Below the pieces are notes generated by a model that saw only the letters and a program-made list of their open reading frames with translations, was not told the origin of the DNA and did not search any database. Positions 1 through 62,000 of a stretch of 64,000 nucleotides of DNA are shown here, one piece after another. The number at the start of each line of letters is the position of its first letter. The stretch's first letter is position 1. The position numbers were made by a program, and so were the translations under genes. The DNA comes from a virus. The stretch lies in IMG/VR virus record IMGVR_UViG_3300047560_000724, positions 1-64,000 of that record. One strand, 5' to 3'.

Positions 1-920
1 ATACCTAACTTTCCCTGTAGTGCTTCTACTTCTGGACCAACACTTCCAACACCTAATGTTCCAGCAGGCCAACCTTTCTTCTGTCCACTTGCACCACCAG
101 CAGGTGTTGTAGTATCAGCTGGTTTAGCTGCATCAGCAGCAGGAGCCGCAGGTGCAGGATTGTTTTTCATGTTCATGAATTCGCTATATGCTTGACTTAG
201 TTCCTTATGTCCTTGAGCGGTTTCATCTGGATCTAAATCAGCTAGACGCTTCATAATCTTATCCATAGTTTCTTGATCGTCTTCTGCAAGATAACCAAAA
301 CTTTCAATTAATGACTTAGCAAGTAATTCGGCACTTTCTTTCTTAACAGGTGCAGCAGGTGTTTTTTGTGCAGATGCTCCAGCGGCCGGTGCAGTTGCAG
401 TAGCTGGTGCAGCAGGTGCCGCTGTCTTTGCTTCTTGTTCTGCTTTAAATGCTGTAACTAGTTTTAAAAGTATAGCATTTCCCTTGGCAATTAACTTTGG
501 AATTCTTGCTTGTGCTTCTGCAGATGTTTGATTAGCTACAGCCTGTGTGCTAGCTTTGCGTAAGTCTGCATCATATTGGTCGCCTGATTGACCAAATGCC
601 TTTCCTAAGAAAGTTGATGTATTTGCATTACCTGGAATTAGTCCCAGTGGAGCAAGTTTAGCATCGTCAGCTTTAGATGCTGTTGCAGAAATACGAGGTT
701 TTTGTTCTGGCCAGTTTGATGTGTCAGGCATTGCTGAAACAAAGTATCCTGATATTGGATCATATAAACCAGGTAGTCCTTCTTTCTCGGCCATTTGCTG
801 TAAAATCTTAGCACGACCTTGTTCGTCTTTTTCTTTTCCAACTAACGCAGCTGCAATACTCTTTTGTGTAACAGCTTCATTAAGTGTGTCTAATTTACTA
901 ATTAGGCTTCTAAAATCCAT
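1..920 (-). CDS. Virion-associated protein with C-terminal peptidoglycan-binding motif (partial)
   Basis: The gene starts with ATG at 920 and runs off the left edge, so only the first 306 residues are visible. It opens with MDFRSLISKLDTLNEA, a short helical tag with an L-N-E motif like those of the following genes, then an Ala/Pro/Thr-rich linker region (about residues 150-200 and 265-285). The last visible residues, VGPEVEALQGKLG, match the start of a PG_binding_1 repeat, which in phage proteins anchors to peptidoglycan. The neighbours are virion/prohead-type genes. A structural or packaged cell-wall-binding protein is likely; an enzymatic domain could lie beyond the edge. Confidence 0.7.
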   Translation of the reverse strand, partial: MDFRSLISKLDTLNEAVTQKSIAAALVGKEKDEQGRAKILQQMAEKEGLPGLYDPISGYFVSAMPDTSNWPEQKPRISATASKADDAKLAPLGLIPGNANTSTFLGKAFGQSGDQYDADLRKASTQAVANQTSAEAQARIPKLIAKGNAILLKLVTAFKAEQEAKTAAPAAPATATAPAAGASAQKTPAAPVKKESAELLAKSLIESFGYLAEDDQETMDKIMKRLADLDPDETAQGHKELSQAYSEFMNMKNNPAPAAPAADAAKPADTTTPAGGASGQKKGWPAGTLGVGSVGPEVEALQGKLG

Positions 921-933
921 TTTATTCTCCGAC

Positions 934-1386
934 TTATTGTTTTGATGTTGCTCTTAGCATCCAACCGTGTTTACGGTGAGCGTCCATGCGCTCTGCTAAA
1001 AAGTTACTTAGACCATGTGCGCCTTCTCTTTCAGCAAGATCATATGCAAGTTTTAATGCTTCCATCAACTTAGCGTTGTCGGCAAGTAAATTTTCAATCA
1101 TAGTTTCGTAAGGAACAATTTCTCTTTCATCTTCAATGATTGAAAGGTCTTGAAATCTTCCTAAGCTAGCAGGGGTATAAGATCCAATAGCACGAATCTC
1201 TTCTGCAAATCTATCAATAGAACCATATACTTCACTATAAATTGTGTCAAATAGTGCATGTAGTTGTGGGAACAATGGTCCTTCTACATTCCAATGGTAG
1301 TTTGCTGCTTTTAAATAAAAGCTAAAAGTACTAGCAAATGTAATTTTCATTGCTTGTTTTAATTCAGTCATTTCAGTATCCTGCAT
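934..1386 (-). CDS. dps: Dps/ferritin-like protein
   Basis: 150 residues, the usual size for Dps. The segment around residues 30-63 carries the Dps ferroxidase signature (NYHWNVEGP, then HALFDTIYSEVYGSIDRFAEEIRA), with His, Asp and Glu ligands in the expected order. Dps proteins form 12-mers that oxidise Fe(II) and can coat DNA. The start overlaps the stop of the upstream gene (TAATG), so the two are translationally coupled, and the gene sits among tagged virion-type genes. Protection of injected or packaged DNA against oxidative damage is an inference. Confidence 0.88.
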   Translation of the reverse strand: MQDTEMTELKQAMKITFASTFSFYLKAANYHWNVEGPLFPQLHALFDTIYSEVYGSIDRFAEEIRAIGSYTPASLGRFQDLSIIEDEREIVPYETMIENLLADNAKLMEALKLAYDLAEREGAHGLSNFLAERMDAHRKHGWMLRATSKQ

Positions 1387-2768
1387 TATTCGCCTATATT
1401 TTTATCAATGCCTCGAGCATTGGTTCCGCCTTTACGGCGTCTAACGACTAATTCATTTATCCCGTGACGAATTTGTTCTAGGTTTTGTTCTAGACCCATA
1501 AACATTCCGCCTTTAGACAAACGAGTAATCTTTTCCCATGTAACTAAATCATCAGTCTCTGCCATTTGTGCTAGTTCTTTTAACTGAGCACGAGCTTGCA
1601 TAATGCGACCTTTTAAGCTCATAGGATTTGCTTTTTCGTGTCCGTATACAACTGGATCATTAGGATCATCAGTTGCATCAATTGGAGCTTCATTTACTGG
1701 CTTACCTTTTTTAACACGCTTTGGTAGTGTGTTTAGTTTTTTGCCAGTATCAGCTTTATTAAATTCTTTAGCAACAGATCCTTTAATGCCAACTTTCTTA
1801 GCAAACTCTGGATTGTGAGCAGCCGCTGCCATTGTGCGAGCTTGTGCTTGACTCACTGATCGTTCTTCTACACGACCTTCTTTGACTAATACGCGATCTG
1901 CCACTACACTAGCGTATTGACGGATCAGTTGTTTTCTTTCAGCTTGCTGTCGTTGTACTTCTGCTTCTGCTTCTGCAAAATACTTTTTAATAACGCTATC
2001 TCTAACAACGGCTTTCTTTGCTGGTTGTTGATAGTGTTGCATTGCCATCTGAACAGGAAGTGCTACTTTGTGTGGATTAGCACCTTCGTTTATTGTTGAT
2101 TCGTCTTGATATTTCTGATTAAGATTAACAGGCGCTGCCGCAGGTACAGCAGGATCTGGAGCATCATACTCCGCCGCCGCATCAATACCTTTAGCTTTTA
2201 ATCCAGCAGCCATTTGAGCTAATTTTGCTCTCATCTTATCCATGTTAGCAGTTACTTCTGGAGACACACTTGAGTAAGTGTTTTGACCAGGAGTATCATG
2301 TAATGCATCGTAACCGTCTATTTGTGCTCTAAGTTGATTATAAGCAAGTTGTTCTGGTGGCAATGTTGACTCGGTGGTTTCTAATTGCGCAGCCATAGCT
2401 GAATGGTTAGCGTTTGCCTGCGCCATTGAATCAGCATTTTCTTTTTGTCTTGCTTGTTCCCATGCTTGTAAATTAGCACCTGCTAGTTGTGCAGCTTTTG
2501 CTTTAATAGCATTAATTGAAGCAACAGCATCTGGACTTGCGCCTTTTTCAACACCACTATTATCGGGTAGCATTTCTTTAGCAAGCATATCATACTTTGC
2601 CATTAGTTGTGCGTACTCTACATATTTAGGATCTTGAGCTGGAGCAGCAACAGGTTGATTTAATTCAGCCTCGGATACAATGCGTAAAAATTTAGACATT
2701 GATGAAGCACCTTCCACAGGCTTTGTAGAAACGCCATCCATAGCCTGTAGAATTTTCTTCATATCCAT
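1386..2768 (-). CDS. Prohead/virion protein with cleavage-like motifs
   Basis: 460 residues, mostly helical, rich in Ala, Gln, Lys and Glu. The N-terminus MDMKKILQAMDGVSTKPVEG resembles the tags of neighbouring genes. Short V/I-x-E motifs (IVSEAE, TINEGA, LVKEGR, PVNEAP) are spread along the chain and resemble sites for T4-type prohead protease, which cuts after (L/I/V)-x-E. It lies between Dps and a second core-like protein. A prohead core or packaged protein is the most likely role; I do not recognise a catalytic domain. Confidence 0.6.
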   Translation of the reverse strand: MDMKKILQAMDGVSTKPVEGASSMSKFLRIVSEAELNQPVAAPAQDPKYVEYAQLMAKYDMLAKEMLPDNSGVEKGASPDAVASINAIKAKAAQLAGANLQAWEQARQKENADSMAQANANHSAMAAQLETTESTLPPEQLAYNQLRAQIDGYDALHDTPGQNTYSSVSPEVTANMDKMRAKLAQMAAGLKAKGIDAAAEYDAPDPAVPAAAPVNLNQKYQDESTINEGANPHKVALPVQMAMQHYQQPAKKAVVRDSVIKKYFAEAEAEVQRQQAERKQLIRQYASVVADRVLVKEGRVEERSVSQAQARTMAAAAHNPEFAKKVGIKGSVAKEFNKADTGKKLNTLPKRVKKGKPVNEAPIDATDDPNDPVVYGHEKANPMSLKGRIMQARAQLKELAQMAETDDLVTWEKITRLSKGGMFMGLEQNLEQIRHGINELVVRRRKGGTNARGIDKNIGE

Positions 2769-2773
2769 AAAAC

Positions 2774-4387
2774 TTATCCTTTAAGGATCTGTGTTAAATG
2801 TTTGATTCGTGTTAGTTCAGCTGATTCGTTAACAGCTTCCGGCATTGCCATTGCTTTGTCCATCATCTCTTTTCCACGACTTGGCATGATTGCCATTTGA
2901 TGCTTTGCTTTTGCAATAGCATCTTTCTTTTCTGGAGAATAGTTAGCTGACGCATCAGTAGCTGGTGCATCTGTTGCAGGTGCGTTACGGCTTGGATATA
3001 CAGCACTTTGAATTTCTTGTACATCAACAGGCTTGCCATCCTTACCTACTACTTCACCTTTGTCTAAACTAACGCGATCTTTTTGTTGAGTAATTCTTTT
3101 CTCTAAAGCAGCTTTAGCTTCTGGGCTTTGATACTTAGGATCTTTGCGGAGCGCAATTAACTTTTGTAGTTGTGGGCTTTTCTTTGCTAGGTTGTTTTCT
3201 GTGTCCATGCCTAGTGCATCGCCGATTGCATCAACTACACCTTCTGCAACTTTCTTCTTAGCATTCTTCCACATAGCGGCAGCGGCAATCTTCTCGCCTT
3301 TCTCCCCGCCACCAGCAGCCTTGGCTACTTTGTCAAATGACTTGCCTACTTTACCAATGTCTTTACCAGCTTTAGCTTTTTTAACTAAAGAAGACTTTGC
3401 TTTCTTAGACATGCCCGCACTTGGTTTGGCGCTTTCATTTGTAGAACATTCGCACTTAGCCTCGATCATTCCACATTCTTCACACTTTTCATCAGTAGCT
3501 TCTTTAACTTTCTTTTTCTTGCCACCCATTTCGTCTTTACCTAAACGACCAGCGACAACATCACCCTTAGTTACTTTGTCGTATGGCTTGGCATTGTTAG
3601 CTAAATTGCCGTCGTTACCTTCTTTAACTTTCTTGCCTATTGCTTTTTTAATAGCAACATCTTTGTTTTGTTTGTACTCGTCGGTATCAGGCTCGTCCTT
3701 ACCATCGTTATCCATGTCGCCTTTGTCAGACTCGTTAACTTTCTTACCATCTTTATAACGGCTTACAGTACCAGGATGTTTCTTTTCGTATGCTTTGCTT
3801 TCTTTCTCAGCAGCTTTGTCAGCAGCCTTGTCGCCTGCTTTCTCAGCGGCCGAACGGCTTTTAACTTTGCTTGCTGGCTCAGCGTGTTCTTCATCGCTGT
3901 GGCTAGTATTAATATGCTTAACACCTGTTGCAGTTTTAGTTGCTACACCTGTACGAGTTTTGAATGAATCACCTTCTTTAGATTTCTCATCGAAACCTTC
4001 TTCAACCTTTTTATCTTTTAACTTTTCAGCTTGTTGCTTTTTAAAGTTTGCAACTTGCTTTTTAGCTTCCATTAGCTTGTTCTTAAGCACAGCTTTTTGG
4101 CTTTCGCTTAATGTATCGCTATTGTCTAAATGATGTCCGTATTCTGTGAACTTCATTTCATATTCTAAATAGTGATATACGCTGGCAATATAGTCAGCAG
4201 CTTTGGTAATTTTAGCTTGTACCCAAGATTCTAATTGTGTATCATCTTGCATATCCTTGAATAATTTCATAGAATATTTTGCTAACTTGTATAAGTCAGC
4301 TTTGGCCATAGCGCCTTCGTGATCTGTTTCTGGGCTAGGCATATTTGTTGGTTCTTGAGGTTCTAAAGGTTGCATTTCGTCGTGCAT
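2774..4387 (-). CDS. Prohead core/scaffold-like protein, highly charged, with repeated KKVxE motifs
   Basis: 537 residues. The N-terminal part (about 25-130) is a conserved-looking helical domain (ADLYKLAKYSMKLFKDMQ, then WVQAKITKAADYIASVYHYL) of a kind common in T4-like marine phages. The rest is Lys/Glu/Asp-rich with repeated KKVEEG, KKVNES, KKVKEG, KKVKEA and KKVAEG elements, and a small Cys cluster (CEECGMIEAKCEC near 300). The C-terminus reads AELTRIKHLTQILKG. The repeated V-x-E elements suggest multi-site processing during head maturation. A CTAAATA late box lies about 20 nt upstream of the ATG, followed by CGGAG as ribosome site. Confidence 0.6.
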   Translation of the reverse strand: MHDEMQPLEPQEPTNMPSPETDHEGAMAKADLYKLAKYSMKLFKDMQDDTQLESWVQAKITKAADYIASVYHYLEYEMKFTEYGHHLDNSDTLSESQKAVLKNKLMEAKKQVANFKKQQAEKLKDKKVEEGFDEKSKEGDSFKTRTGVATKTATGVKHINTSHSDEEHAEPASKVKSRSAAEKAGDKAADKAAEKESKAYEKKHPGTVSRYKDGKKVNESDKGDMDNDGKDEPDTDEYKQNKDVAIKKAIGKKVKEGNDGNLANNAKPYDKVTKGDVVAGRLGKDEMGGKKKKVKEATDEKCEECGMIEAKCECSTNESAKPSAGMSKKAKSSLVKKAKAGKDIGKVGKSFDKVAKAAGGGEKGEKIAAAAMWKNAKKKVAEGVVDAIGDALGMDTENNLAKKSPQLQKLIALRKDPKYQSPEAKAALEKRITQQKDRVSLDKGEVVGKDGKPVDVQEIQSAVYPSRNAPATDAPATDASANYSPEKKDAIAKAKHQMAIMPSRGKEMMDKAMAMPEAVNESAELTRIKHLTQILKG

Positions 4388-4408
4388 GGTAAACTCCGTT
4401 ATTCTATA

Positions 4409-4415
4409 TATTTAG
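4409..4415 (-). promoter_or_regulatory. Late promoter box before prohead core-like gene
   Basis: CTAAATA on the minus strand, 21 nt before the ATG at 4387, with CGGAG between. Confidence 0.5.
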
Positions 4416-5086
4416 CGTCTTTTGATAGTTGGGCCACCAAAAATGCTTGTGCCTTTCATATCTAATGCGTTATCTGTAGGCTTTTGTGCCTTTGGTTTAG
4501 GCTGTGGAGGCGCCTTAGTACCTGATTTGCCTGGGCTTCCGATGTAGCTTTTCTTGCCACGGGCCTTACCTGGGCTGATGTGCGGTGCATCAACAGTACC
4601 AATGCTAGCAGCACTTGTTGCGCCAGCTGTAGCTGTTTCATTCATTCCACCTAGGATCTTCTTAGCGTTTTCTAAGTCACGAACTTTGCCTTGTAAGCTG
4701 TGATAATCATCACGGCCTTGGCTCCAAGTATTACGGGCACCGTATTGGTAATCGTTGTATGCTTTGTCCATTGCAGGCTTTAATTTAGCAATTTCAGCAT
4801 CGAGATCTACTCCAGCATATTTGTCGCGAACTGATTGCTCGTGATCTGCTTTTGCTTTTGCTTCTCTGTCTGCCGCCCATTTATCAGAGCGTGCCTTAGC
4901 ACGACCTAATCCAATCTCACGGCGGTCAATTTTATGTGAATGCTTTGCTTTTGTTTCGTCGCTTTGATCGTGACCAAATGCTTTGCTCATAGCACGACTA
5001 GCTTGATCTAATTTTGCTTTTCTAGTATAGTCGCCTAGAGAAATCTCTGATAGCTGACTTTCAGTTAGTAAGTCTGTAATTTTCAT
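4412..5086 (-). CDS. Tagged small virion-type protein
   Basis: 224 residues starting MKITDLLTESQLSEIS, a leader-like tag with L-T-E and L-S-E sites, followed by a basic, Ala/Lys-rich helical region and a Gly/Pro/Lys-rich tail ending TSIFGGPTIKRR. No enzymatic motif is visible. It sits in the same run of tagged genes as Dps and the nucleotidyltransferase. Its basic character would suit a DNA-associated internal head protein; that is inference. Confidence 0.55.
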   Translation of the reverse strand: MKITDLLTESQLSEISLGDYTRKAKLDQASRAMSKAFGHDQSDETKAKHSHKIDRREIGLGRAKARSDKWAADREAKAKADHEQSVRDKYAGVDLDAEIAKLKPAMDKAYNDYQYGARNTWSQGRDDYHSLQGKVRDLENAKKILGGMNETATAGATSAASIGTVDAPHISPGKARGKKSYIGSPGKSGTKAPPQPKPKAQKPTDNALDMKGTSIFGGPTIKRR

Positions 5087-5087
5087 A

Positions 5088-5381
5088 TTATTTTCCTGTA
5101 GGCTTTTCGCCAGTCATGTATGGTAAACTAAACCATAGTCTAAACCACTCTGGTGTTCCAGGTTTGATATTTTGTTCGCGTTGTATGCGTCCTTTATCAT
5201 TACCTGTAACACTAATGTTACTACCTTGATTTACACGGTATTCATGTAAACGACCTTGACCGTTTATACCACCAAGGTATTGTAAAACTTTTATTTCATT
5301 AATAGGGTCGCTAGGATCTAGATAGCAATCGTCTTGACTATCTAAATTTAAATGTTCGCTAGTGACTCTGTACTGTTTCAT
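5088..5381 (-). CDS. Hypothetical protein
   Basis: 97 residues with no recognised motif. It begins MKQYRVTSEHLNLDSQDDC and ends WFSLPYMTGEKPTGK. Unlike its neighbours it lacks the R-E-L-F or LxE tag at the N-terminus. It overlaps the upstream nucleotidyltransferase gene by 4 nt (ATGA), so it belongs to the same operon. Confidence 0.6.
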   Translation of the reverse strand: MKQYRVTSEHLNLDSQDDCYLDPSDPINEIKVLQYLGGINGQGRLHEYRVNQGSNISVTGNDKGRIQREQNIKPGTPEWFRLWFSLPYMTGEKPTGK

Positions 5382-5968
5382 TTCTTAACTTTTTCTGGAT
5401 ATTCTTTAAGGTATCTTGCTACTAGGTCAAAAAACTTAACACTACGCTTGCCTACCTTAATAGGAGTATCTGCGCTTACACCTGCCGCCGCACTAAACAA
5501 TTCTCTGTCGCCTTGGCGGACAGCAGCTCTTAGTGCTGTTGCTGAACTTAATCTAGGTGTCGGTTCATGGCTGATACTTGCAAATTTATAAAATCCATGC
5601 GGCCCTTCGATCCCATTATATTTTTCTAAGCTAGATGTTAACCATGCTTCGTCTGTACACACTTTTAAATGAGCATGATGACCGTGCTTTTGTGAAATGC
5701 GTGTTGCTAGTGTAAACAAGTTTTGCTCTGGAATTACATGTCCTGCAACTTCGGGCCAAACAGTTTCCATAGCTACTAATTTTACATCGTATGGTAACGG
5801 GTCGTTTGGACCTTGAGTGTTTTGATTTGTGCCAATGTAGAATGTATCAAACTGTGCGGCAGTTTCCCATGCAGCCTTATGACCTTTATGTGGAGGATTC
5901 CAACGGCCATAACATACGCCAATAGATGGCCCATGCTCTGCATTTTCAAATAATTCTCTTAGTTTCAT
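5378..5968 (-). CDS. Cytidylyltransferase-like nucleotidyltransferase with N-terminal tag
   Basis: 196 residues from ATG 5968, chosen because it overlaps the upstream stop as ATGA and gives the tag MKLRELFENAE. After the tag comes the class I nucleotidyltransferase (NadR/NMNAT-like, HxGH superfamily) signature GVCYGRWNPPHKGHKAAWE, where PHKGH is the (H/P)xGH nucleotide-binding motif, and near residues 128-133 a SSATALR motif resembling the family's ISST.R motif. Such enzymes transfer AMP or CMP to a phosphate acceptor. The tag contains L-F-E, suggesting the enzyme may be packaged in the head. Substrate unknown. Confidence 0.75.
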   Translation of the reverse strand: MKLRELFENAEHGPSIGVCYGRWNPPHKGHKAAWETAAQFDTFYIGTNQNTQGPNDPLPYDVKLVAMETVWPEVAGHVIPEQNLFTLATRISQKHGHHAHLKVCTDEAWLTSSLEKYNGIEGPHGFYKFASISHEPTPRLSSATALRAAVRQGDRELFSAAAGVSADTPIKVGKRSVKFFDLVARYLKEYPEKVKK

Positions 5969-7182
5969 ACTCGCCCTGCCCCAGGTGCCCATGTTGTTGG
6001 CACTATTTTAATATTTCCGTATTTGTGATTCTTCTGTGCATAACGGACATGCCCTTCACCGTTAGTATCCCAAATCTCTTTTCTAGGCTGTTGTTTAATT
6101 GCGGCATCAACCTGATCTTTCATATTTCTAATACCTTTAATCAAGTGGAATATTGCATCAAGGCCACCTGGATGTTCTTGAGTCATAGCAATAATATGTT
6201 GTTGCTTCTTTTGACTTACACCCTTTTCAATCATCCAGTCGATAAATGTTTTTCCAGATATTGTGTTAAAGTCTTGTTTGCCACTAGCGTGTAAGTTACT
6301 CATATGATTAAAGAACGGATAAAAGATTCCATTCTTATCTGGATCTGGCAGGCTAGCTAAGAATCCGTCAATGATTGCACCATTTGTATTAGTATATTCA
6401 ATCATTTGATCAATAGCAGGAGTTTCAAATTCAGGTGCTGTGTCAACATATATAGGACCTTGAACAATTAGTCCTGGAGTACTATTAAACATTTCAAAGT
6501 CGTCAACTGGTCGTTGTGCTTTATCAGGAGCACCAAAAGAATCAAACTCGCCATGACCGACTACCATAACCTGTGCCTTACCAATGCGTTGACCTAGTTC
6601 GCTTGCAGCATCAACATGGTAACAAGTATTTGATTTAGGATTAGGACAGAATGTCCATATACCTGCAGGATATGCTTGTGTAGGCTTTTCTAATTTTTTA
6701 GGATTACCCGGTTCAACGCCGAACAAGTTATCAGCATATACAAAGCCTACAAAATCTTTAGGAGTGGCCGCATCGAACAACGGATATAAATTTGCAAAGT
6801 TTGTAGCAAAGTCTTGTCTTTGCTTTACTTGCTCAGGTGTTGTTGCTTTACCGCTTTGATTGGCAATAAAGTCATAGACTTCGTGAGGACTAGTTGCCTT
6901 AACTCCTCTACTCCATTGATTATGTCCTGCTAATATTAAAGGACCACCTGCTGCTTCTCTACCCCAGTATACTTGAGGGTTACCATCCCACTTACGACGA
7001 ATAGTAGTCTTACCTTCTTTCTCATCAGCTATTTCTTTAAAATGCTGAAGTGCTTCCATTGTACCTGCAGAGCCTTTAAAGAAAACTAAATGCTCTGGAT
7101 GATTGAACGCTCGTCCGTATTTTTCCATACTGTCATCAGTAGGAGCACTTGCTTCACGAAAGAATAGTTCTCTTAGTAACAC
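5965..7182 (-). CDS. Ligase-like nucleotidyltransferase (KxDG), tagged
   Basis: 405 residues starting MLLRELFFREASAP. Around residues 70-75 RRKWDGNPQVYWG carries a K-x-D-G motif, the nucleotidyl-lysine site of the RNA/DNA ligase superfamily, and FVGFVYADNLF (about 155) resembles a later motif of that fold. I believe related proteins occur in T4-like cyanophages as an uncharacterised family. It is coupled to the downstream nucleotidyltransferase (ATGA), so the two enzymes may act on one substrate. Ligase activity is inferred from the motif only. Confidence 0.6.
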   Translation of the reverse strand: MLLRELFFREASAPTDDSMEKYGRAFNHPEHLVFFKGSAGTMEALQHFKEIADEKEGKTTIRRKWDGNPQVYWGREAAGGPLILAGHNQWSRGVKATSPHEVYDFIANQSGKATTPEQVKQRQDFATNFANLYPLFDAATPKDFVGFVYADNLFGVEPGNPKKLEKPTQAYPAGIWTFCPNPKSNTCYHVDAASELGQRIGKAQVMVVGHGEFDSFGAPDKAQRPVDDFEMFNSTPGLIVQGPIYVDTAPEFETPAIDQMIEYTNTNGAIIDGFLASLPDPDKNGIFYPFFNHMSNLHASGKQDFNTISGKTFIDWMIEKGVSQKKQQHIIAMTQEHPGGLDAIFHLIKGIRNMKDQVDAAIKQQPRKEIWDTNGEGHVRYAQKNHKYGNIKIVPTTWAPGAGRV

Positions 7183-7191
7183 GCTAGATCC

Positions 7192-7545
7192 TTAGTACAT
7201 CTTTTTCTTGATGTTTTCAACTTCGTCTTCTTTAATCTTTTCGCATACTTTACTAAAGTCTTCTTGCTCTAAACTTTCAGGTAAAAGCATGTCATTAAAT
7301 TCTGCGATGTAACATTCGTATGCGTGTTTTACTACAGGAGCGAACGATTCTGCTGTTACTCGTTGTCCTTTTTTAATAGCATTTTTGCATTTAATTAGGT
7401 GAGGATAATAGTGACGACGATAGAAATCATCGTTGTTGTGCATATAATAGATTAGGTCTTCACAAATATCAAATGTTGACTGTTCTTCTTTATCTTCTTC
7501 TTTGAGCTTTGGTGAAAAGTTTTCAAAAAGTTCCCTAATTTTCAT
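7192..7545 (-). CDS. Small tagged virion-type protein
   Basis: 117 residues starting MKIRELFENFSPKLKEEDKE, nearly identical in its first nine residues to the tag of the nucleotidyltransferase at 5378-5968. The body is acidic and helical with several Tyr/His residues and no known motif. A GATAAATA late box lies about 20 nt upstream, with AGGATCTGAT before the ATG as a ribosome site. Confidence 0.6.
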   Translation of the reverse strand: MKIRELFENFSPKLKEEDKEEQSTFDICEDLIYYMHNNDDFYRRHYYPHLIKCKNAIKKGQRVTAESFAPVVKHAYECYIAEFNDMLLPESLEQEDFSKVCEKIKEDEVENIKKKMY

Positions 7546-7968: not shown

Positions 7969-8615
7969 CAAGTATTTATTGCTTTTACAATGCGCTCTAT
8001 TTTAGATATAGAGCCACCGAGATGCATCTTTGCCATGAGCAAATTCTTCTCTCCAGTGATGTAAAAGTGCGTACCGCCCCAGGTTCTATTCTTCAATAGG
8101 TCCTTTTTACAGCTTTTTGTCAACTTGATTTTTGTACTAGCTTCAGCCCAATTAACAAATGTACTATGCTCTTCAGTAGTTTTTCCAAGGGTAACTCTGT
8201 AGTCAAAGTCAGTCTTGGGCATAATAATTACTCCCACATCTAGCGTTGTATTTGCAGGAGGAACGCTTATATACTTTACCTTATCTTGATCTAGCTTGAT
8301 TAAATCATCAACATTTGTCTTGGTGTTTGTATAGATAGAAATCCAAGGGCTTTCAACACGAACATCTATGTCAGTTAATGACGATAACTTGTTTTGCAAC
8401 TTAAAAGCATAATCAAGATCATCTTTACTTTTAATAGAAGTCCGGTGTAGTCTATAAGGTGACAATGGATCTTTTTCTGTAATATCAATTTTTTTAAGTT
8501 GATTAAGAGTTGATTCAAAATCACCTGATCGAAACATAGACGCACCGGCGCATAACAGTACAACCTTGTACTGATATACGCCTCTAAATAACTTAGTCGT
8601 TGTCTTGGTGAGCAT
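7968..8615 (-). CDS. Hypothetical conserved phage protein
   Basis: 215 residues, overlapping the end of clpA by 23 nt. No catalytic motif is evident. The sequence alternates charged helices with beta segments (DVGVIIMPKTDFDYRVTLG near 130, NRTWGGTHFYITGEKNLL near 175). A start at the internal Met in GASMFRSGDF would avoid the overlap but loses about 26 residues, so the long start is only moderately certain. Confidence 0.55.
   Translation of the reverse strand: MLTKTTTKLFRGVYQYKVVLLCAGASMFRSGDFESTLNQLKKIDITEKDPLSPYRLHRTSIKSKDDLDYAFKLQNKLSSLTDIDVRVESPWISIYTNTKTNVDDLIKLDQDKVKYISVPPANTTLDVGVIIMPKTDFDYRVTLGKTTEEHSTFVNWAEASTKIKLTKSCKKDLLKNRTWGGTHFYITGEKNLLMAKMHLGGSISKIERIVKAINT
7973..7980 (-). promoter_or_regulatory. 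Late promoter box immediately before 7582-7968 gene
   Basis: AATAAATA on the minus strand, four nt (CTTG) before the ATG at 7968; lies inside the upstream coding sequence. Confidence 0.55.
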
Positions 8616-10869
8616 CTTCAGTTATGCTTTCAATTGCAAGTAGCGGAACTTTTGGAGCCTTTGGTTTTGAAATTAATGAAATCTTGTCATCAACTACAGT
8701 AATAGTTAACCAACCACCGTTCTTCAAGTCACCAAATAACATCATACGAGCAAGATCTCGCTTAATTTCTTTATCGATGACTCGTTGTAGAGGACGGGCG
8801 CCCATCTTAGCATCAAAGCCTTTGTCAATAAGCCAGTTAATAGCATCCTTATCAATTTTAATACGGATAGCTTTTTCTTTAACTTGCTCTTTAAGCTCGT
8901 CAATAAACTTCATAACAACCTTAATCATTGTTTCTTTACCTAGCTTGTTAAAGGTAATGATACCATCTAAGCGGTTACGGAACTCTGGGGTAAAGAATTT
9001 ATTAAGTTCTTTGTCGCTATATTGTTTTTGTTGACTACCAAAGCCAATGGCATTTTTATCAGCGTCAGCTGCGCCAGCATTAGTAGTAAGGATAAGAATC
9101 AAATTACGGCAATCTGCTTTCTTACCATTAGACCCTGTTACAAAACCATTATCCATCATCTGCAACAGTACAGTCGACACATCAGGATGTGATTTTTCAA
9201 CCTCGTCAAACAACAGAACAGCGTTTGGATTTTCTTGAATCTGTGTAATCAACAAGCCTGCATTTTCTTCAAAACCAACATAACCTGGAGGGCTACCGAT
9301 TAGCTTAGAGATGCTATGCTTCTCTTGGTATTCTGACATGTCAAAGCGTAGTAGCTTAACACCTAAGTTCTTAGCAAGAGACTTAGCAGTTTCGGTCTTA
9401 CCGCAACCAGTTGGGCCCATGAATACAAATGATCCAATGGGTTTATTTTCAGATTTCAAACCAGCTTGTGCAACAATAATCTTGTCTACCACTTCTTGTA
9501 CAGCAAGATCTTGTCCGTATACTTCGTCTTGAAGTTTTGTTTGTAGAGTTGCAAGGTTATTGCTTTCTGTTTCTGCAACCTGCTCTTCAGGCAAGTTAAT
9601 CATCTTAGCAAGTTCAAACTGGATCTCGCCTTCTCCAACCACACGCTCGTCTGCAAGTTTTAAGTTAAAGCGTGAGCAAGCTAAGTCAATCAAGTCAATA
9701 GCCTTATCCGGCAACTTCTTGTCTGTTTGATATTTGACAGATAATTTAATAGCCGCCTGTAGTGCGTCATCTTTAATTTTTACATTGTGATGACCTTCAT
9801 AGTATTTCTTAATACCTTTAAGGATCTGAAGAGTAACTTCTGTAGTTGGCTCGTCAACAGTAATGCGTTGGAATCGACGCATCAATGCACGATCCTTCTC
9901 AAAGTGCTTGCGATATTCTTCCCAGGTAGTTGACGCTACAACTTTAATGTTGCCTTTGCTTAGTGCAGGCTTCATCATGTTAGCAAGGTCGTTAGCTGAA
10001 TTGCTAGCGGTACCTGCACCAGAGATCATATGCGCTTCGTCAATAAACAAGACAGTTTTGCCTTTCTTCTGAAGTGCTTTAATAACAAGTTTAAAGCGTT
10101 CTTCAAAGTCTCCGCGATACTTACTGCCAGCTAACATAGCACTAATATCTAGGTTATAAACTGTGTAGTCTTTTAAGAAGTCTGGAACCGCACCTTTAAC
10201 AATGTTGTAGGCAAGACCTTCTGCAATCGCAGTCTTACCAACACCCGGATCGCCTACTAAGATCACATTGTTCTTGCTTCTGCGCCCCATTGACAATGCA
10301 ATGTTTTCTAGCTCATCTATACGACCAATCACTGGGTCAATTTTATTCTTCTTAACTTGATCGTTAAGGTTTGTCGTAAATGCGTTTAGTGCTTTGCTAG
10401 AATTACTGTCTTGCGGTTCATCGTCGCCCGCTTCGTCCATGTTGTTGTTAAGGTAATCAGCAAATTTCTCTTTATCAATTTCTGCTTGTGCAATATAAAA
10501 GTGTGCCCAGCTACGCTTCTCGCCCATCATAGCAAGGAACACATCTGTAGGTTCAATGCGTTGACGACCATTGAATAGTACTTGTGTAAATGCACGATTA
10601 AGTACACGCTCGACTGATTGTGTTTTCTTTGGCTTAACTACTACTTCTTGTGTTGTAATTTCGGAACACTTGTGTTGTAAGTAGTCAGCAACATGTTTTT
10701 TTAAGTCATCAGCGTTAGCACCGTATCCTTGAACGCATTTTGTAAATGACTCGTCAAGAAGCATAGCAAATAACAAATGCTCGATGGTTAAGTATTCATG
10801 GTGTAGTTTTTTAGCAGTATCAATTGCTTTTTCAAAAACTGATTGTAAATTGTCGCTTGGTTCAACCAT
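8593..10869 (-). CDS. clpA: ClpA-like AAA+ unfoldase, ATP-binding subunit of Clp protease
   Basis: 758 residues, the length of bacterial ClpA. It has an N-terminal Clp_N repeat domain (1-145), a first AAA+ module with Walker A GDPGVGKTA (about 206) and Walker B VLFIDEAH, and a second with GPTGCGKTE (about 480) and VLLFDEVEKSH. It has no long middle domain, unlike ClpB. Near residue 610 an A-I-G-F segment matches the IGL/IGF loop by which ClpA docks on ClpP. The window also encodes ClpP (41013-41633), so a complete phage ClpAP is possible. A consensus promoter lies directly upstream at 10897-10925. Confidence 0.93.
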   Translation of the reverse strand: MVEPSDNLQSVFEKAIDTAKKLHHEYLTIEHLLFAMLLDESFTKCVQGYGANADDLKKHVADYLQHKCSEITTQEVVVKPKKTQSVERVLNRAFTQVLFNGRQRIEPTDVFLAMMGEKRSWAHFYIAQAEIDKEKFADYLNNNMDEAGDDEPQDSNSSKALNAFTTNLNDQVKKNKIDPVIGRIDELENIALSMGRRSKNNVILVGDPGVGKTAIAEGLAYNIVKGAVPDFLKDYTVYNLDISAMLAGSKYRGDFEERFKLVIKALQKKGKTVLFIDEAHMISGAGTASNSANDLANMMKPALSKGNIKVVASTTWEEYRKHFEKDRALMRRFQRITVDEPTTEVTLQILKGIKKYYEGHHNVKIKDDALQAAIKLSVKYQTDKKLPDKAIDLIDLACSRFNLKLADERVVGEGEIQFELAKMINLPEEQVAETESNNLATLQTKLQDEVYGQDLAVQEVVDKIIVAQAGLKSENKPIGSFVFMGPTGCGKTETAKSLAKNLGVKLLRFDMSEYQEKHSISKLIGSPPGYVGFEENAGLLITQIQENPNAVLLFDEVEKSHPDVSTVLLQMMDNGFVTGSNGKKADCRNLILILTTNAGAADADKNAIGFGSQQKQYSDKELNKFFTPEFRNRLDGIITFNKLGKETMIKVVMKFIDELKEQVKEKAIRIKIDKDAINWLIDKGFDAKMGARPLQRVIDKEIKRDLARMMLFGDLKNGGWLTITVVDDKISLISKPKAPKVPLLAIESITEDAHQDND

Positions 10870-10896
10870 TAGGCTTCCTTATATTGGTGATGTGTT

Positions 10897-10925
10897 ATTT
10901 TATAACTAAACTTTACAAATGTCAA
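10897..10925 (-). promoter_or_regulatory. sigma70-type promoter of clpA
   Basis: Reading the minus strand, TTGACA (10925-10920), a 17-nt spacer and TAAAAT (10902-10897) precede the clpA ATG at 10869 by about 28 nt. Confidence 0.7.
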
Positions 10926-11782
10926 GACTTAATCAAGTCATTTATTTCTTTTAATTTCTTAACCAGTTCCGGATCAGTAATATTTGGCGATTCAATTTGA
11001 ATTACGGTAACAAATCTACCTTTAAGTCCGTTATGTGGATTTGTAAATCCTTGCCCAGCACTTGCGTATTCTCTTCCGGGCATCACTCCACCCCGGATAT
11101 CCAAGTCCATTTCTTGTCCAGTAATTAACTTAACTTTCTTCTTACAACCGATCATTGCCTCAATTGGATTAATAACAATCTCAGTATATAAGTCGTCATC
11201 GATTCTCTTATAGTTTGGATCAGGAAGAATAACGATAGTAACATTTAAATTACCACGAGGCGCATTTGGCATTGTATCATCGCCTAGTCCAGTATAACGA
11301 ATAGTTTCACCGTGGCTAACACCAGGGGGGACATTAATTGCTACAGTCTGGCTCTTACCGCTAGGCAATTTGTAATTTGCTTCTAGTTGTTTACCTATGT
11401 AAGAATCAAGCAAGGTGATTTGGCACTGAATGTTTAAATCGCGATTGCGTCTTATATGTCTGCCAAATATATCACCAAACGGATTTCCATTGCCAAACGG
11501 TCCTCCAAAGTGTGCGCTGAACATATCGTTCATGTCTTGAAAGCCCGGGCCGCCTGTATGGAATCTAAATTCTCTAGGGCCACCGCCTTGGCGTTGCATA
11601 TCATATTCGGCTCGTTTATTAGAATCACTTAGAGTATCATATGCTACACTAATGTCTTTAAATTTAGCTTGGTCGCCACCTTTATCAGGGTGGTGTTTAT
11701 TGGCCAGCTTGCGATAAGCCTTTTTAATTTCGTCAGGGCCAGCTTGCGGGCTAACACCTAATGTTTGATAGTAATCAGTCAT
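10922..11782 (-). CDS. dnaJ: DnaJ/CbpA-type Hsp40 co-chaperone
   Basis: 286 residues. The J domain occupies about 1-68 with the invariant HPD in KHHPDKGGD, which stimulates Hsp70 ATPase. It is followed by a Gly/Phe-rich linker (about 70-105) and two beta-barrel substrate-binding domains. The Cys-rich zinc finger of DnaJ is absent, so this is class B, like CbpA. No DnaK is seen in the window, so it presumably redirects host DnaK. It lies next to clpA, and its promoter carries an inverted repeat that could be an operator. Confidence 0.92.
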
Positions 11783-27526: not shown

Positions 27527-28087
27527 TTACTCAGCTAATCCTGCTCTAGCACTAATTACATTCCAATTGATGATTTTCCATTGGTTTTCTAAGTACTTCT
27601 TCTTGTCTGCTTGATAGTCTAATGCCCAAGCGTGTTCCCACCAATCAATAAGCAATACAATATCAAACTTAATATCGTGGTTCTTTATAGTCTTTATTTT
27701 TCCATCTTTTGCCAAGTATACCCATCCGCTACCTTGAATTGCCATCGCTTCTTTAGCAAATGCTTCTTTAAACTTGTCAAAAGTCTTAAAATGTTTAGTA
27801 ATAAGTTCACTTGCTGAACCGCTAGGAGCATTAGAATTTGTTGGCTTTTGAAATTGTGTAAAGTACAGATCGTGTAAGAATGCACCTGCTTCATTAAAGT
27901 CTGCATCGCCTTCTCCGTTATTAAACCGGTCAACATAGGCTTTATATAACTTACCATAATGGTAATCTAATGACTGTTTACTTAAACTTTTACCTAACTC
28001 ATTACGGTCGTACGGTAACGCTGTCTGTGTTAAAGTTTTAGGTGCTTTGCCTTCATTTAATGAAACATATCTGATAAAGTTATACAT
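27527..28087 (-). CDS. sod: Fe/Mn superoxide dismutase
   Basis: 186 residues, close to the usual 190-200. LPYDRNELGKSLSKQSLDYHYGKLYKAYVD carries the first metal His (about 42), FLHDLYFTQ the second, and LLIDWWEHAWALDYQADKKKYLE the Asp and His ligands (about 144-148). It converts superoxide to peroxide. Some usual residues after the first His (HHxxY) are altered, so metal preference is unclear. The ATG follows a CTAAATA late box by 5 nt with no ribosome site, suggesting a leaderless late mRNA. Confidence 0.9.
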   Translation of the reverse strand: MYNFIRYVSLNEGKAPKTLTQTALPYDRNELGKSLSKQSLDYHYGKLYKAYVDRFNNGEGDADFNEAGAFLHDLYFTQFQKPTNSNAPSGSASELITKHFKTFDKFKEAFAKEAMAIQGSGWVYLAKDGKIKTIKNHDIKFDIVLLIDWWEHAWALDYQADKKKYLENQWKIINWNVISARAGLAE

Positions 28088-57307: not shown

Positions 57308-57385
57308 TGGAGCAACGGGAGGGATTTGAACCCCCGGTTTTACGGATTTGCAATCCGTTGCATTGGGCCGCTCTGCCACCGTTGC
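57308..57385 (-). tRNA. tRNA-Cys (GCA)
   Basis: Acceptor GCAACGG, anticodon loop TTGCAAA, T-arm GGGGG-TTCAAAT-CCCTC, discriminator U73 (Cys identity) and encoded CCA. Confidence 0.95.
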
Positions 57386-57390
57386 ATATT

Positions 57391-57466
57391 TGGTGGGTCC
57401 TGACGGGCTCGAACCGCCGACATTCTGCGTGTAAGGCAGACGCTCTACCAACTGAGCTAAGGACCC
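57391..57466 (-). tRNA. tRNA-Val (UAC)
   Basis: Acceptor GGGTCCT, anticodon loop CTTACAC, canonical D-loop TTGGTA, encoded CCA. Confidence 0.95.
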
Positions 57467-57473
57467 AAATGCT

Positions 57474-57704
57474 TTACTTGACTCGCTTCAAGTACTCTTT
57501 ACCAATCTTACCTTCTTGAATTTCTTCTAAGGCTGTAATGATAGGAAAAATATGTTCTCGCTTAGTGCTTTCTTGATTGTGTCTTTTGATTTCTCTAGAC
57601 CTTGCCGCAGCAATTAATACAAGATCAAATCTATTCTCCCCTGCATTAGTAACACACTTGTCAGTGTCAATACCAGTACCACGACTATCACTTAGCTTTC
57701 TCAT
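57474..57704 (-). CDS. rpoZ: RNA polymerase omega subunit
   Basis: 76 residues. DKCVTNAGENRFDLVLIAAA, RSREIKRH and PIITALEEIQEGKIGKEYL follow the omega pattern (C...NRFxLVxxAxxRAREI ... ALxEIxxGK). Omega helps assemble beta-prime and affects sigma choice. The copy lies between tRNA-Val and tRNA-Arg in the tRNA array. It might replace host omega to tune RNA polymerase for phage promoters; inference. Good length and motif agreement, so confident of the family. Confidence 0.88.
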   Translation of the reverse strand: MRKLSDSRGTGIDTDKCVTNAGENRFDLVLIAAARSREIKRHNQESTKREHIFPIITALEEIQEGKIGKEYLKRVK

Positions 57705-57732
57705 ATAATATCCTCTTTGTGTATTTAATACT

Positions 57733-57807
57733 TGGTCCCGTTACCAAGAATCGAACTTGGATCTAATTCTTAGGAGGAACTTGTTCTATCCATTGAACTA
57801 TAACGAG
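57733..57807 (-). tRNA. tRNA-Arg (CCU)
   Basis: Acceptor CTCGTTA with one G-U pair, anticodon stem AGTTC/GAATT, loop CTCCTAA, encoded CCA. Confidence 0.9.
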
Positions 57808-57808
57808 A

Positions 57809-57898
57809 TGGTCCCCCGTTGAGGAATCGAACCTCATCCTGGACCTTATCTAGATTAAGGTGTTATAAGCACCCCTGCTCTCCATGAGCTAACGGGGG
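57809..57898 (-). tRNA. Unusual 90-nt tRNA: Ile (UAU) or, in an alternative fold, CUA anticodon
   Basis: Acceptor CCCCCGT and T-arm TGAGG-TTCGATT-CCTCA are perfect and CCA is encoded. Between D-arm and T-arm are two overlapping 5-bp/7-nt hairpins: GGGTG-CTTATAA-CACCT (anticodon UAU) and CCTTA-ATCTAGA-TAAGG (CUA). They share bases, so only one can form fully. If the first is the anticodon arm, the tRNA has a long variable arm, unusual for Ile. Confidence 0.7.
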
Positions 57899-57905
57899 AT
57901 GAAGT

Positions 57906-57979
57906 TGGTTGCGGGTCCCGGAATCGAACCAGGATCTCGAGCTTATGAGACTCGTGAGTTACCGTTTCTCTAACCCGCT
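57906..57979 (-). tRNA. tRNA with CAU anticodon (Met or Ile2), copy 1
   Basis: Anticodon loop CTCATAA in stem CGAGT/GCTCG, T-arm CCTGG-TTCGATT-CCGGG, encoded CCA. The first pair of the acceptor is an A1/A72 mismatch, reminiscent of initiators, but the G-C run of an initiator anticodon stem is absent. Lysidine-modified Ile2 is also possible. Confidence 0.88.
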
Positions 57980-57985
57980 ATAAAT

Positions 57986-58062
57986 TGGTCGGAGTACAAG
58001 GATTCGAACCTTGGACCCCCTGGTCCCAAACCAGGTGCGCTACCAGACTGCGCCACACTCCG
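57986..58062 (-). tRNA. tRNA-Pro (UGG)
   Basis: Acceptor CGGAGTG, anticodon loop TTTGGGA in stem CCTGG/CCAGG, T-arm intact, encoded CCA. Confidence 0.95.
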
Positions 58063-58064
58063 AA

Positions 58065-58277
58065 TTAAACTGTTGTTTTCTTTTTCCTAGTCTTCTTAAC
58101 TGGAATTTCTGCACTCGCTACACTAGCAATAGCTTCTTGGACATCACGCATAAGGGCTTCGTCGTCCCATATAAGTTCTGTACTTCCGTCTTCAAATGTC
58201 TTAACGGTTAGGTGACTACCTTGATTAATCTTTGGCCATCCGTTAGCTTCTACATTTTTTAATTTCTTAGTCGCCAT
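58065..58277 (-). CDS. Small conserved phage protein
   Basis: 70 residues: MATKKLKNVEANGWPKINQG, DGSTELIWDDEALMRDVQEA, basic end KKTRKKKTTV. I know this type only as an uncharacterised protein of T4-like phages. It lies between tRNA-Pro and tRNA-Gly. Confidence 0.6.
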   Translation of the reverse strand: MATKKLKNVEANGWPKINQGSHLTVKTFEDGSTELIWDDEALMRDVQEAIASVASAEIPVKKTRKKKTTV

Positions 58278-58295
58278 TTGCTAGTCCTTAAAATT

Positions 58296-58368
58296 TGGAG
58301 CGGGTAGTCGGATTCGAACCGGCTTCTTTAGCTTGGAAGGCTAAGTCCTCTCCCAGGAGAATACCCGC
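58296..58368 (-). tRNA. tRNA-Gly (UCC)
   Basis: Acceptor GCGGGTA, anticodon loop CTTCCAA in stem TTAGC/GCTAA, T-arm GCCGG-TTCGAAT-CCGAC, encoded CCA. Confidence 0.95.
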
Positions 58369-58571
58369 ATAGTGTTTAGCTACTCCCACCACAGGAGCCC
58401 TAAACTGAGCTGTTACTCTGTCCACTAGCCTTTCCATCTAGACGGTGCTGAGGTCCGCCTTTGTGATTTCTCAAGTCGCTTTACACAAGCCTTGCGGTAG
58501 ATCCAATGCACCGAGCTATTAAGGTTTAAGCAATTACCTAACTCTATTACGCTGAGTTAACGCGGGGTTTT
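58369..58571 (-). other. 203-nt structured spacer in tRNA array, candidate ncRNA
   Basis: No coding frame and no T-arm. Minus-strand RNA can form GTTTAG-GGCTCC-TGTGGTG-GGAG-CTAAAC (a strong hairpin near 58380-58415), a 6-bp long-range stem CGGTGC/GCACCG and a hairpin AACTC...GAGTT. Unlike usual tRNA spacers of 2-10 nt it is long and GC-richer than nearby intergenic DNA. Confidence 0.4.
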
Positions 58572-58647
58572 TGGTGCCCCTTGTCCGACTCGAACAGACC
58601 ACCTACTGATTACAAATCAGTTGCTCTACCAGATGAGCTAAAGGGGC
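58572..58647 (-). tRNA. tRNA-Thr (UGU)
   Basis: Acceptor GCCCCTT, anticodon loop TTTGTAA in stem ACTGA/TCAGT, encoded CCA. Confidence 0.95.
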
Positions 58648-58653
58648 GTATTG

Positions 58654-58914
58654 TTATTTAATTTCGTTACCTGCTAGGTCTGCTTTTCCAGTCTCATAAA
58701 GTTCTTTGCGTCTTGCAAATTCATCTTCACTTAAACCGTGCCAACCAATACACTTGCCAGTTGGGCTACGGCCACACCCGCATCTTCCAACTTCGTCTAT
58801 ATTTTCTTTTACTCTTACTTGCATATCTTTATCTTTTTTAAAAATTGCATCCCAGTTACTATCAAATGTAGTTAATGGAACACTTAACGGTCTTGCTTTA
58901 CTGCCTTTACCCAT
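58654..58914 (-). CDS. CDGSH-like iron-sulfur protein
   Basis: 86 residues from ATG 58914 (AGGAG upstream). RCGCGRSPTGKCIGWHGLSE has C-x-C-x2-S-x4-C-x-G-x-H, close to the CDGSH cluster motif C-x-C-x2-S-x5-C-D-G-x-H, though one residue shorter and with Ile for Asp. It may hold a 2Fe-2S cluster or a zinc ion. It lies between tRNA-Thr and an HNH gene. Confidence 0.55.
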   Translation of the reverse strand: MGKGSKARPLSVPLTTFDSNWDAIFKKDKDMQVRVKENIDEVGRCGCGRSPTGKCIGWHGLSEDEFARRKELYETGKADLAGNEIK

Positions 58915-58942
58915 TAGATAATCTCCTGTGTGTTTGGTGGAC

Positions 58943-59329
58943 TTATCGTTTAAGTCCCCTTGCCTGTCTGCCCTTACCTTTATTCTTAGCAACAAATGTA
59001 TCTGTTTGACTATGGCAGTTTGGACACAACAGTCTTAAATTTTTTGGCTTATCATTACCTGCATCACCGTCTATATGATCTAATTGTAGCACTAAAGGTA
59101 CATCGTTGTAAACCCCTTCATTGCCACAACTTACACATCTATAACCATGCAAGTGTGTTAAGCATCTTATTAAAGTTCTTCTTGTAGAAATTTCGCCTTT
59201 TAAAAACTTAGACAAAGTTTCTGTTTCAAATTGATGTTGCTGCTGACAAGTGTTATTACAATACTTGTTTGCATAATTCCTTTTTACAGGATTCTCTTTA
59301 CCGCAACATAAACAATTGAATGTATTCAT
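58943..59329 (-). CDS. HNH endonuclease
   Basis: 128 residues from ATG 59329. Zinc-ribbon pairs CLCCGKE...YCNNTC and CVSCG...CPNC surround the HNH core LQLDHIDGDAGNDKPKNLRLLCPNCHSQT. Free-standing HNH enzymes in phages act as homing endonucleases or aid packaging. Placement inside the tRNA array suggests a mobile insertion. Confidence 0.85.
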   Translation of the reverse strand: MNTFNCLCCGKENPVKRNYANKYCNNTCQQQHQFETETLSKFLKGEISTRRTLIRCLTHLHGYRCVSCGNEGVYNDVPLVLQLDHIDGDAGNDKPKNLRLLCPNCHSQTDTFVAKNKGKGRQARGLKR

Positions 59330-59369
59330 AATGTAGTCCTCTACATTATTTATACAGAACTCTACATTT

Positions 59370-60050: not shown

Positions 60051-60054
60051 TGTA

Positions 60055-60062
60055 TATTTATG
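60055..60062 (-). promoter_or_regulatory. Late promoter box immediately before oxygenase-like gene
   Basis: CATAAATA on the minus strand, four nt before the ATG at 60050. Its upstream end overlaps the CCA of tRNA-Asn. Confidence 0.55.
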
Positions 60063-60137
60063 GCTCCCCGAGCTGGGCTCGAACCAGCGACACCTTGATT
60101 AACAGTCAAGTGCTTCTACCAACTGAGCTATCAGGGA
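60061..60137 (-). tRNA. tRNA-Asn (GUU)
   Basis: Acceptor TCCCTGA, anticodon loop CTGTTAA in stem CTTGA/TCAAG, T-arm GCTGG-TTCGAGC-CCAGC, encoded CCA. Confidence 0.95.
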
Positions 60138-60143
60138 ATATTC

Positions 60144-60593: not shown

Positions 60594-60634
60594 ACTTACA
60601 CCTTTAAAAATGTAAATTACTTATCACTACTAAT

Positions 60635-61016: not shown

Positions 61017-61022
61017 ATTGTT

Positions 61023-61107: not shown

Positions 61108-61112
61108 ATATC

Positions 61113-61998: not shown

Positions 61999-62000
61999 CA

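What the first reader, a model, noticed from the sequence alone, without database searches (positions are those of the whole stretch)
1..7545. Run of proteins with a shared N-terminal tag and L/V-x-E sites: candidate packaged cargo
MKLRELFENAE, MKIRELFENFS, MLLRELFFREA, MKITDLLTESQ, MDFRSLISKLDTLNEA and MDMKKILQAMDG open consecutive genes with otherwise unrelated bodies. T4 internal proteins carry a short capsid-targeting sequence cut after L/I-x-E by the prohead protease. Here the cargo would include a nucleotidyltransferase and a ligase-like enzyme, which could be injected with DNA; the Dps gene lies in the same run.
Basis: partly seen in the sequence, partly recalled or inferred. Interest (0 to 1): 0.7.

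Follow-up and report, generated by a model that had tools for sequence, protein, structure and literature searches.

The report
Phage enzymes tagged for head packaging
A run of unrelated proteins in a T4-like phage begins with the same short peptide ending in a protease cut-site motif; evidence from many relatives and from published virion proteomes suggests that this peptide loads enzymes into the virus head, probably to be delivered with the DNA, by a T4-type system not previously noticed in these phages.

Summary
The tags are real. Genes at 7192-7545, 5965-7182, 5378-5968, 4412-5086 and 3-920 begin with an amphipathic peptide ending in hydrophobic-x-Glu. Across about 20 orthologues each, the peptide of the first three is the most conserved part (100/86/85% identity), is followed by a hypervariable linker, and varies synonymously in the DNA. 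The Glu is invariant, allowing for one mis-called start. The 4412-5086 family gives the clearest cut-site evidence: 17 short orthologues fuse the tag directly to E|(S/T)ATAGATSAGNI, the segment that also follows the predicted maturation cut in the major capsid protein; P1 is Glu in 35/35, P3 is I/L/M/V in 34/35. A 161-kb relative encodes the gp21-type (S77) protease. In cyanophage S-CREM2, five of 28 non-structural virion proteins carry the T4-spaced tag against 1 of 167 undetected proteins (p=0.00024). Orthologues of the nucleotidyltransferase and of a tagged superoxide dismutase were detected in other phages' virions. Corrections: MDMKKILQAMDG is not the cut tag (the T4-spaced 10-mer is at residues 24-33); Dps and the 5088-5381 gene are untagged; 2774-4387 looks like a multiply cut core protein; "ligase" rests only on KxDG/DUF6267. 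No virion data exist for this phage; injection is inferred.

The parts
7192..7545 (-). 117-aa protein of unknown function; tag MKIRELFE|N at 7522-7545
   Evidence: 20 orthologues: tag 85%, linker 39%, body 49% identical; E8 invariant
5965..7182 (-). 405-aa DUF6267 protein with KxDG motif (6982-6993); tag MLLRELFFRE|A at 7153-7182, GTG start
   Evidence: tag residues 1-7 100% identical in 18 orthologues, E10 in 20/20, linker 42%, body 74%; synonymous variation; Pfam PF19782 4.8e-8
5378..5968 (-). 196-aa cytidylyltransferase/NMNAT-like nucleotidyltransferase (GRWNPPHKGH at 5879-5908); tag MKLRELFE|N at 5945-5968
   Evidence: tag 86%, linker 19%, body 54% identical; phrog_3041 9.6e-12; orthologues in virions of S-CREM2 gp154 and S-SZBM1 gp140
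5088..5381 (-). 97-aa protein, untagged
   Evidence: starts MKQYRVTSEHLN; no L-x-E site
4412..5086 (-). 224-aa protein; tag MKITDLLTE|S at 5060-5086; second site MNE| followed by capsid-arm-like TATAGATSAASIGTVD (4589-4645)
   Evidence: best hit in this record to the mature N-arm of the relative's major capsid protein; short orthologues fuse tag to TATAGATSAGNI
2774..4387 (-). 537-aa candidate multiply cleaved head-core protein, no N-terminal tag
   Evidence: 10 [LIVM]xE[AGSN] sites against 2.3 expected (P=0.0002); G001 orthologue 7 against 2.0; scaffold gp22 of G001 15 against 3.1
1386..2768 (-). 460-aa head protein with 33-aa presequence; T4-spaced 10-mer MSKFLRIVSE|A at 2670-2699; second site INE|G within 2064-2093
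   Evidence: [VI]xE|[GA] conserved at the same place in relatives; PHROG virion structural families
934..1386 (-). Dps/ferritin-like protein, untagged
   Evidence: Pfam Ferritin 2.8e-21; no tag in 16 orthologues
3..920 (-). Open-ended protein; longer tag MDFRSLISKLDTLNE|A at 876-920
   Evidence: relatives keep a similar N-terminus followed by an E site
27527..28087 (-). Fe/Mn superoxide dismutase with N-terminal extension MYNFIRYVSLNE|G at 28052-28087 (outside the finding)
   Evidence: Pfam Sod_Fe_C 4.5e-24; PA5oct orthologue gp223 (MNDSIKKYISIAE|A) annotated ESI-MS/MS

Best explanation
The shared N-terminal peptides are T4-type capsid-targeting propeptides. They dock each protein to the prohead core, and the gp21-type protease then cuts after [L/I/V/M/F/Y]-x-E, releasing the mature protein inside the head. 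The cassette therefore encodes head-interior proteins: a nucleotidyltransferase, a DUF6267 protein, a small unknown protein, a capsid-arm-like protein, a multiply cut core protein and others. Shown from sequence: tag conservation, detached linker, invariant Glu, a matching site in the capsid protein, protease in a relative, and virion location of orthologues elsewhere. Inferred: cleavage in this phage, copy number, and delivery of the enzymes into the host with the DNA.
For: (1) Tag, linker and body identity: 100/42/74% (5965-7182), 86/19/54% (5378-5968), 85/39/49% (7192-7545). (2) Twelve distinct nucleotide versions of the 5965-7182 tag encode nearly one peptide, so selection acts on the peptide. 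(3) In the 4412-5086 family P1 is E in 35/35 and P3 is I/L/M/V in 34/35; 17 short members read like MKIREIFE|TATAGATSAGNIATV, and the capsid protein reads KYLME|SPTAGATSAGNIST. (4) Peptidase_S77 in the 161-kb relative. (5) S-CREM2: T4-spaced tag on 5 of 28 non-structural virion proteins (SAM hydrolase, kinase, cytidylyltransferase, gp13, gp136) against 1 of 167 undetected, p=0.00024; over all 52 virion proteins p=0.0032. (6) Nucleotidyltransferases in several T4-like virions (PMC3037559, PMC9602691, PMC10665884, PMC9146016). (7) T4 controls: the pattern finds IPII, IPIII and gp24 (MAKINELLRE|S) among the T4 genes checked; in IPIII residues 4 and 7 target, 8 and 10 are for processing (PMC9026906).
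Against: No proteomics for this phage. The 80.6-kb record lacks the head operon, and the relative's protease frame is interrupted. In PA5oct the tag is not significantly enriched in MS-detected proteins (3/93 against 7/246, p=0.55; looser motif p=0.06). P3 is F/Y in most 5965-7182 orthologues, outside the strict L/I-x-E of T4. Three tags are one or two residues shorter than T4's. The S-CREM2 authors warn that enzymes in CsCl virions may be carry-over.
Confidence: 0.8

Rival explanations
1. The peptides dock the proteins to something else, such as the tail, membrane or a replication complex, and are never cut.
For: Only sequence is available for this phage; short amphipathic peptides can serve many docking roles (inference).
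Against: P1 Glu and hydrophobic P3 are invariant or nearly so and followed by a hypervariable linker; the same site context is at the capsid protein's predicted maturation cut; tags of this kind mark virion proteins in S-CREM2.
Confidence: 0.1
2. The proteins are tagged and packaged but stay in the head as structural or core proteins and are not injected (a sub-case of the best explanation).
For: The neighbours at 1386-2768 and 2774-4387 look like core or structural proteins; T4 IPs and Alt are the established injected cargo.
Against: The tagged set includes enzyme families (nucleotidyltransferase, superoxide dismutase), for which a purely structural role is less natural.
Confidence: 0.35
3. 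Chance similarity plus N-terminal composition: many phage proteins start MK-hydrophobic and contain Glu.
For: The bare L/V-x-E motif is not enriched across this record (9 against 7.9), and PA5oct shows no clear enrichment.
Against: Conservation above body level with synonymous change and 35/35 P1 Glu.
Confidence: 0.03

Closest known systems
T4 capsid-targeting sequence of IPI/IPII/IPIII (MKTYQEFIAE|A) cut by gp21
   Same: Short N-terminal amphipathic peptide, hydrophobics three apart, cut motif hydrophobic-x-Glu, unrelated bodies behind one tag
   Different: Three of the window tags are shorter (Glu at 8 or 9), P3 can be F/Y, and the bodies include recognisable enzyme families
T4 gp24 propeptide (MAKINELLRE|S)
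   Same: Closest in letters to the 4412-5086 family tags (MKINELLGE, MKIREIISE types)
   Different: gp24 is a vertex capsid protein; the window family is an 80-220 aa protein carrying only a capsid-arm-like segment
Virion-borne nucleotidyltransferases of T4-like cyanophages (S-SM1, S-SCSM1, S-SZBM1, S-CREM2)
   Same: Same domain family; tag present in both virion-detected ones whose sequence I read (MKNFSSFLTE in S-CREM2, MRFRQFIIE in S-SZBM1)
   Different: The papers read do not explain how the enzyme is packaged
Head protein propeptides of giant phages phiKZ and SPN3US
   Same: Cleavage after x-x-Glu by a gp21-related protease
   Different: Mostly long propeptides and an A-x-E or S-x-E motif

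Membership tests
T4-type capsid-targeting sequence | Short peptide at the extreme N-terminus shared by proteins with unrelated bodies | tested here: met
   Five genes; orthologue alignments
T4-type capsid-targeting sequence | Cleavage motif L/I-x-E at the end of the tag | tested here: met
   Glu invariant apart from one mis-called start; P3 L/I/V/M in most families but F/Y in most 5965-7182 orthologues
T4-type capsid-targeting sequence | Exact T4 spacing of key positions 4, 7, 8, 10 | tested here: inconclusive
   Exact in 1386-2768 residues 24-33 and in G001 5549-6160; same relative spacing but one shorter in 4412-5086; not exact in 5378-5968, 7192-7545 and 5965-7182
T4-type capsid-targeting sequence | gp21-type prohead protease in the same phage | tested here: inconclusive
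   Absent from this fragment; Peptidase_S77 2e-19 in the 161-kb relative, with an interrupted frame
T4-type capsid-targeting sequence | Tagged protein present in the virion, processed after the Glu | not testable with these tools
   No proteomics for this phage; orthologues detected elsewhere, without N-terminal mapping
T4-type capsid-targeting sequence | Tag alone directs a foreign protein into the head | not testable with these tools
   Needs a fusion experiment
DNA/RNA ligase (5965-7182) | Nucleotidyltransferase fold with motifs I, III-V | tested here: inconclusive
   KWDG motif I-like and DUF6267 only; AlphaFold model pLDDT 67 with no PDB fold match
Cytidylyltransferase/NMNAT-like superfamily (5378-5968) | Superfamily match with the HxGH motif | tested here: met
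   GRWNPPHKGH; phrog_3041 9.6e-12; Pfam below cut-off. Substrate not determined

The most novel reading that the evidence does not exclude
A portable packaging code is used widely by T4-like phages outside the T-evens to load metabolic and counter-defence enzymes (NMNAT-like, superoxide dismutase, SAM hydrolase, kinase, a Cas9-annotated nuclease) into the head. It includes a family in which the tag is fused to a copy of the major capsid protein's own mature N-arm, which changes with the capsid protein between lineages and may tether cargo to the inner capsid or act as a pseudo-substrate of the protease.
Probability: 0.5. Interest if true: 0.8.

Novelty: new variant of a known kind. Interest (0 to 1): 0.66.

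Why it matters
Virion proteomics of T4-like phages keeps finding enzymes whose packaging is unexplained and which are sometimes suspected to be contamination. A readable tag would turn genome sequence into a prediction of which enzymes ride in the head and act at the start of infection. It also gives a direct test for each protein (N-terminus after the Glu) and candidate tags for loading proteins into other phage heads. The capsid-arm-like family is a separate lead on how cargo meets the shell.

Tried and rejected
Bare L/V-x-E count as evidence: rejected, not enriched in this record. PA5oct enrichment test: not significant, though individual MS-detected proteins are tagged (gp333 MKINDIITE, gp246 MKIKDILVE, superoxide dismutase gp223). 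My first S-CREM2 run used my own gene caller, whose wrong starts hid two tags; repeated with annotated starts. Two looser patterns tried on S-CREM2 gave weaker results (regex A p=0.037; window-type p=0.23 over all virion proteins, 0.028 for non-structural ones); I quote the T4-derived spacing because it was fixed by T4, but several patterns were tried. Ligase fold for 5965-7182: low-confidence model, no PDB match, no useful sequence match to solved structures. Direct tblastn of the 405-aa protein in annotated phages: none; the link to cyanophage DUF6267 came through profiles. Dps as tagged cargo: rejected. DNA-level or gene-overlap constraint as the cause of tag conservation: rejected by synonymous variation. 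Capsid-arm mimic in T4: none among 41 T4 proteins checked (inh was not correctly translated there and remains unchecked).

Full report
What was checked. The window is bases 1-64000 of an 80,579-base linear virus record. All nine genes between 1 and 7545 are on the minus strand. The quoted N-termini are correct. The 405-aa gene starts with GTG behind AAGGATCT, and the nucleotidyltransferase starts at MKLRELFE, at an ATGA overlap with the upstream gene.

Is it more than chance? A bare [LIVFM]xE[AGSN] near the N-terminus is not enriched in this record (9 genes against 7.9 expected) but is in the 161-kb relative G001 (18 against 7.7, none of 2000 resamplings). A tag pattern gives 6 of 80 genes against 2.4 expected, four of them in this run. 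Orthologues settle it. Relatives came from 24 IMG/VR loci. In the 5965-7182 family tag, linker and body are 100, 42 and 74% identical; in 5378-5968 they are 86, 19 and 54%; in 7192-7545 they are 85, 39 and 49%. The terminal Glu is present in every orthologue of these three, allowing for one mis-called start. The tags change freely at synonymous positions (twelve nucleotide versions of MLLRELF with one residue change), so the peptide is what is kept.

The cut site. The protein at 4412-5086 carries MKITDLLTE and, ending at residue 150, MNE followed by TATAGATSAASIGTV. In relatives this family also exists as 80-90 aa proteins in which the tag runs straight into that segment, such as MKIREIFE|TATAGATSAGNIATV. 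Of 35 distinct members with the motif, P1 is Glu in all 35 and P3 is I, L, M or V in 34. The same segment follows the predicted maturation cut of the major capsid protein in G001 (KYLME|SPTAGATSAGNIST) and PA5oct (RFLVE|NASAGATQAGNIAT). With the capsid arm as query, this family is the best non-capsid match in each genome tested: this record, G001-G004, PA5oct (gp281) and S-CREM2 (gp160). In S-CREM2 the arm is a different sequence (GFTGAAAPGGPNAGFDPVM) and the partner matches that one (GFTGAAAPEGPVAGYDPLM; score 95 against a background of 20 +/- 5), and PHROG independently calls the N-terminal segment 'major head protein'. gp281 and gp160 were both detected in virions by mass spectrometry. G001 encodes the gp21-type protease (PF03420, 2e-19), although its frame is interrupted in that assembly.

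Independent test on published virions. T4's targeting sequence is ten residues; positions 4 and 7 target, 8 and 10 serve processing, and gp21 cuts after L/I-x-E (PMC9026906). I applied the T4 spacing to S-CREM2, a T4-like cyanophage with a published virion proteome (PMC10665884, Table 3). Five of 28 non-structural virion proteins carry it (SAM hydrolase MKDFDSFLEE, kinase MKRFDAFLTE, cytidylyltransferase MKNFSSFLTE, gp13 MKDLHSFLTE, gp136 MQTFSMFFSE) against 1 of 167 undetected proteins (p=0.00024; p=0.0032 over all 52 virion proteins). The Cas9-annotated virion protein carries RFASFMAE|A a little inside its N-terminus. In S-SZBM1 the cytidylyltransferase is tagged (MRFRQFIIE|A) and detected, while the adjacent DUF6267 protein is untagged and was not reported (PMC9146016). 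Nucleotidyltransferases of this kind recur in T4-like virions, and those authors leave packaging unexplained or suspect carry-over. In a similar test PA5oct is not significant, though its tagged superoxide dismutase, orthologous to window 27527-28087, was detected. As a control the T4 spacing finds IPII, IPIII and gp24 (MAKINELLRE|S) among the T4 genes checked.

Corrections to the finding. MDMKKILQAMDG is conserved but is not the cleavable tag; its protein has a 33-residue presequence ending in MSKFLRIVSE|A, with exact T4 spacing, at 2670-2699. Dps and the 97-aa gene are untagged. The 537-aa protein at 2774-4387 has ten [LIVM]xE[AGSN] sites where 2.3 are expected (P=0.0002); its G001 orthologue has seven, and the G001 scaffold fifteen, so it is likely a core protein cut in many places, as T4 gp22 is. 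Calling 5965-7182 a ligase rests on KWDG and a modest DUF6267 match (4.8e-8); the predicted structure was poor and matched nothing.

Mechanism. Most likely each tag docks on the prohead core, the protease cuts after the Glu, and the mature protein stays in the filled head. Tag conservation, the site, and the virion location of orthologues are shown; cutting in this phage and injection are inferred. An injected nucleotidyltransferase could act on NAD metabolism from the first minutes, but its substrate is unknown.

Standing. This is a variant of the T4 targeting system. A search for 'capsid targeting' in the open-access library returned T4, P1, SPN3US and vaccine-platform papers among the phage hits shown, and no report in cyanophages or in these relatives; subscription journals are not covered.

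Noticed in passing
window 4589-4645; PA5oct gp281 (L054:27321-28817); S-CREM2 gp160 (L050:28342-29235): A head-protein family carries a copy of the mature N-arm of its own phage's major capsid protein, and the copy differs between lineages in step with the capsid protein. Function unknown; tether or protease pseudo-substrate are guesses.
   Followed up: partly
window 27527-28087: Fe/Mn superoxide dismutase with a 12-residue tag-like N-terminal extension (MYNFIRYVSLNE|G); the PA5oct orthologue is tagged and annotated as MS-detected, while the Vibrio phage 2.275.O orthologue has no tag.
   Followed up: partly
L030:5201-5829 (G001:C1:45201-45829): The S77 prohead protease frame of the 161-kb relative is interrupted (a TAA within the match, two overlapping frames), probably an assembly error or a real frameshift.
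   Followed up: no
window 2777-2833: The 537-aa protein ends in VNE|SAELTRIKHLTQILKG, a leucine-rich tail behind a possible cut site; scaffold proteins of relatives end in similar IRKLAGLKI / LRRLAGIK tails. Possibly a C-terminal docking element.
   Followed up: partly
S-CREM2 gp12 (L048:7704-10313): A protein annotated as Cas9-like was detected in virions (PMC10665884) and carries a T4-spaced tag (RFASFMAE|A) near its N-terminus.
   Followed up: no
window 57308-63937: 28 tRNA genes in one cluster covering many amino acids.
   Followed up: no
window 8593-11782: ClpA-like ATPase next to a DnaJ-like protein just upstream of the cassette; PA5oct annotation shows the same pair.
   Followed up: no
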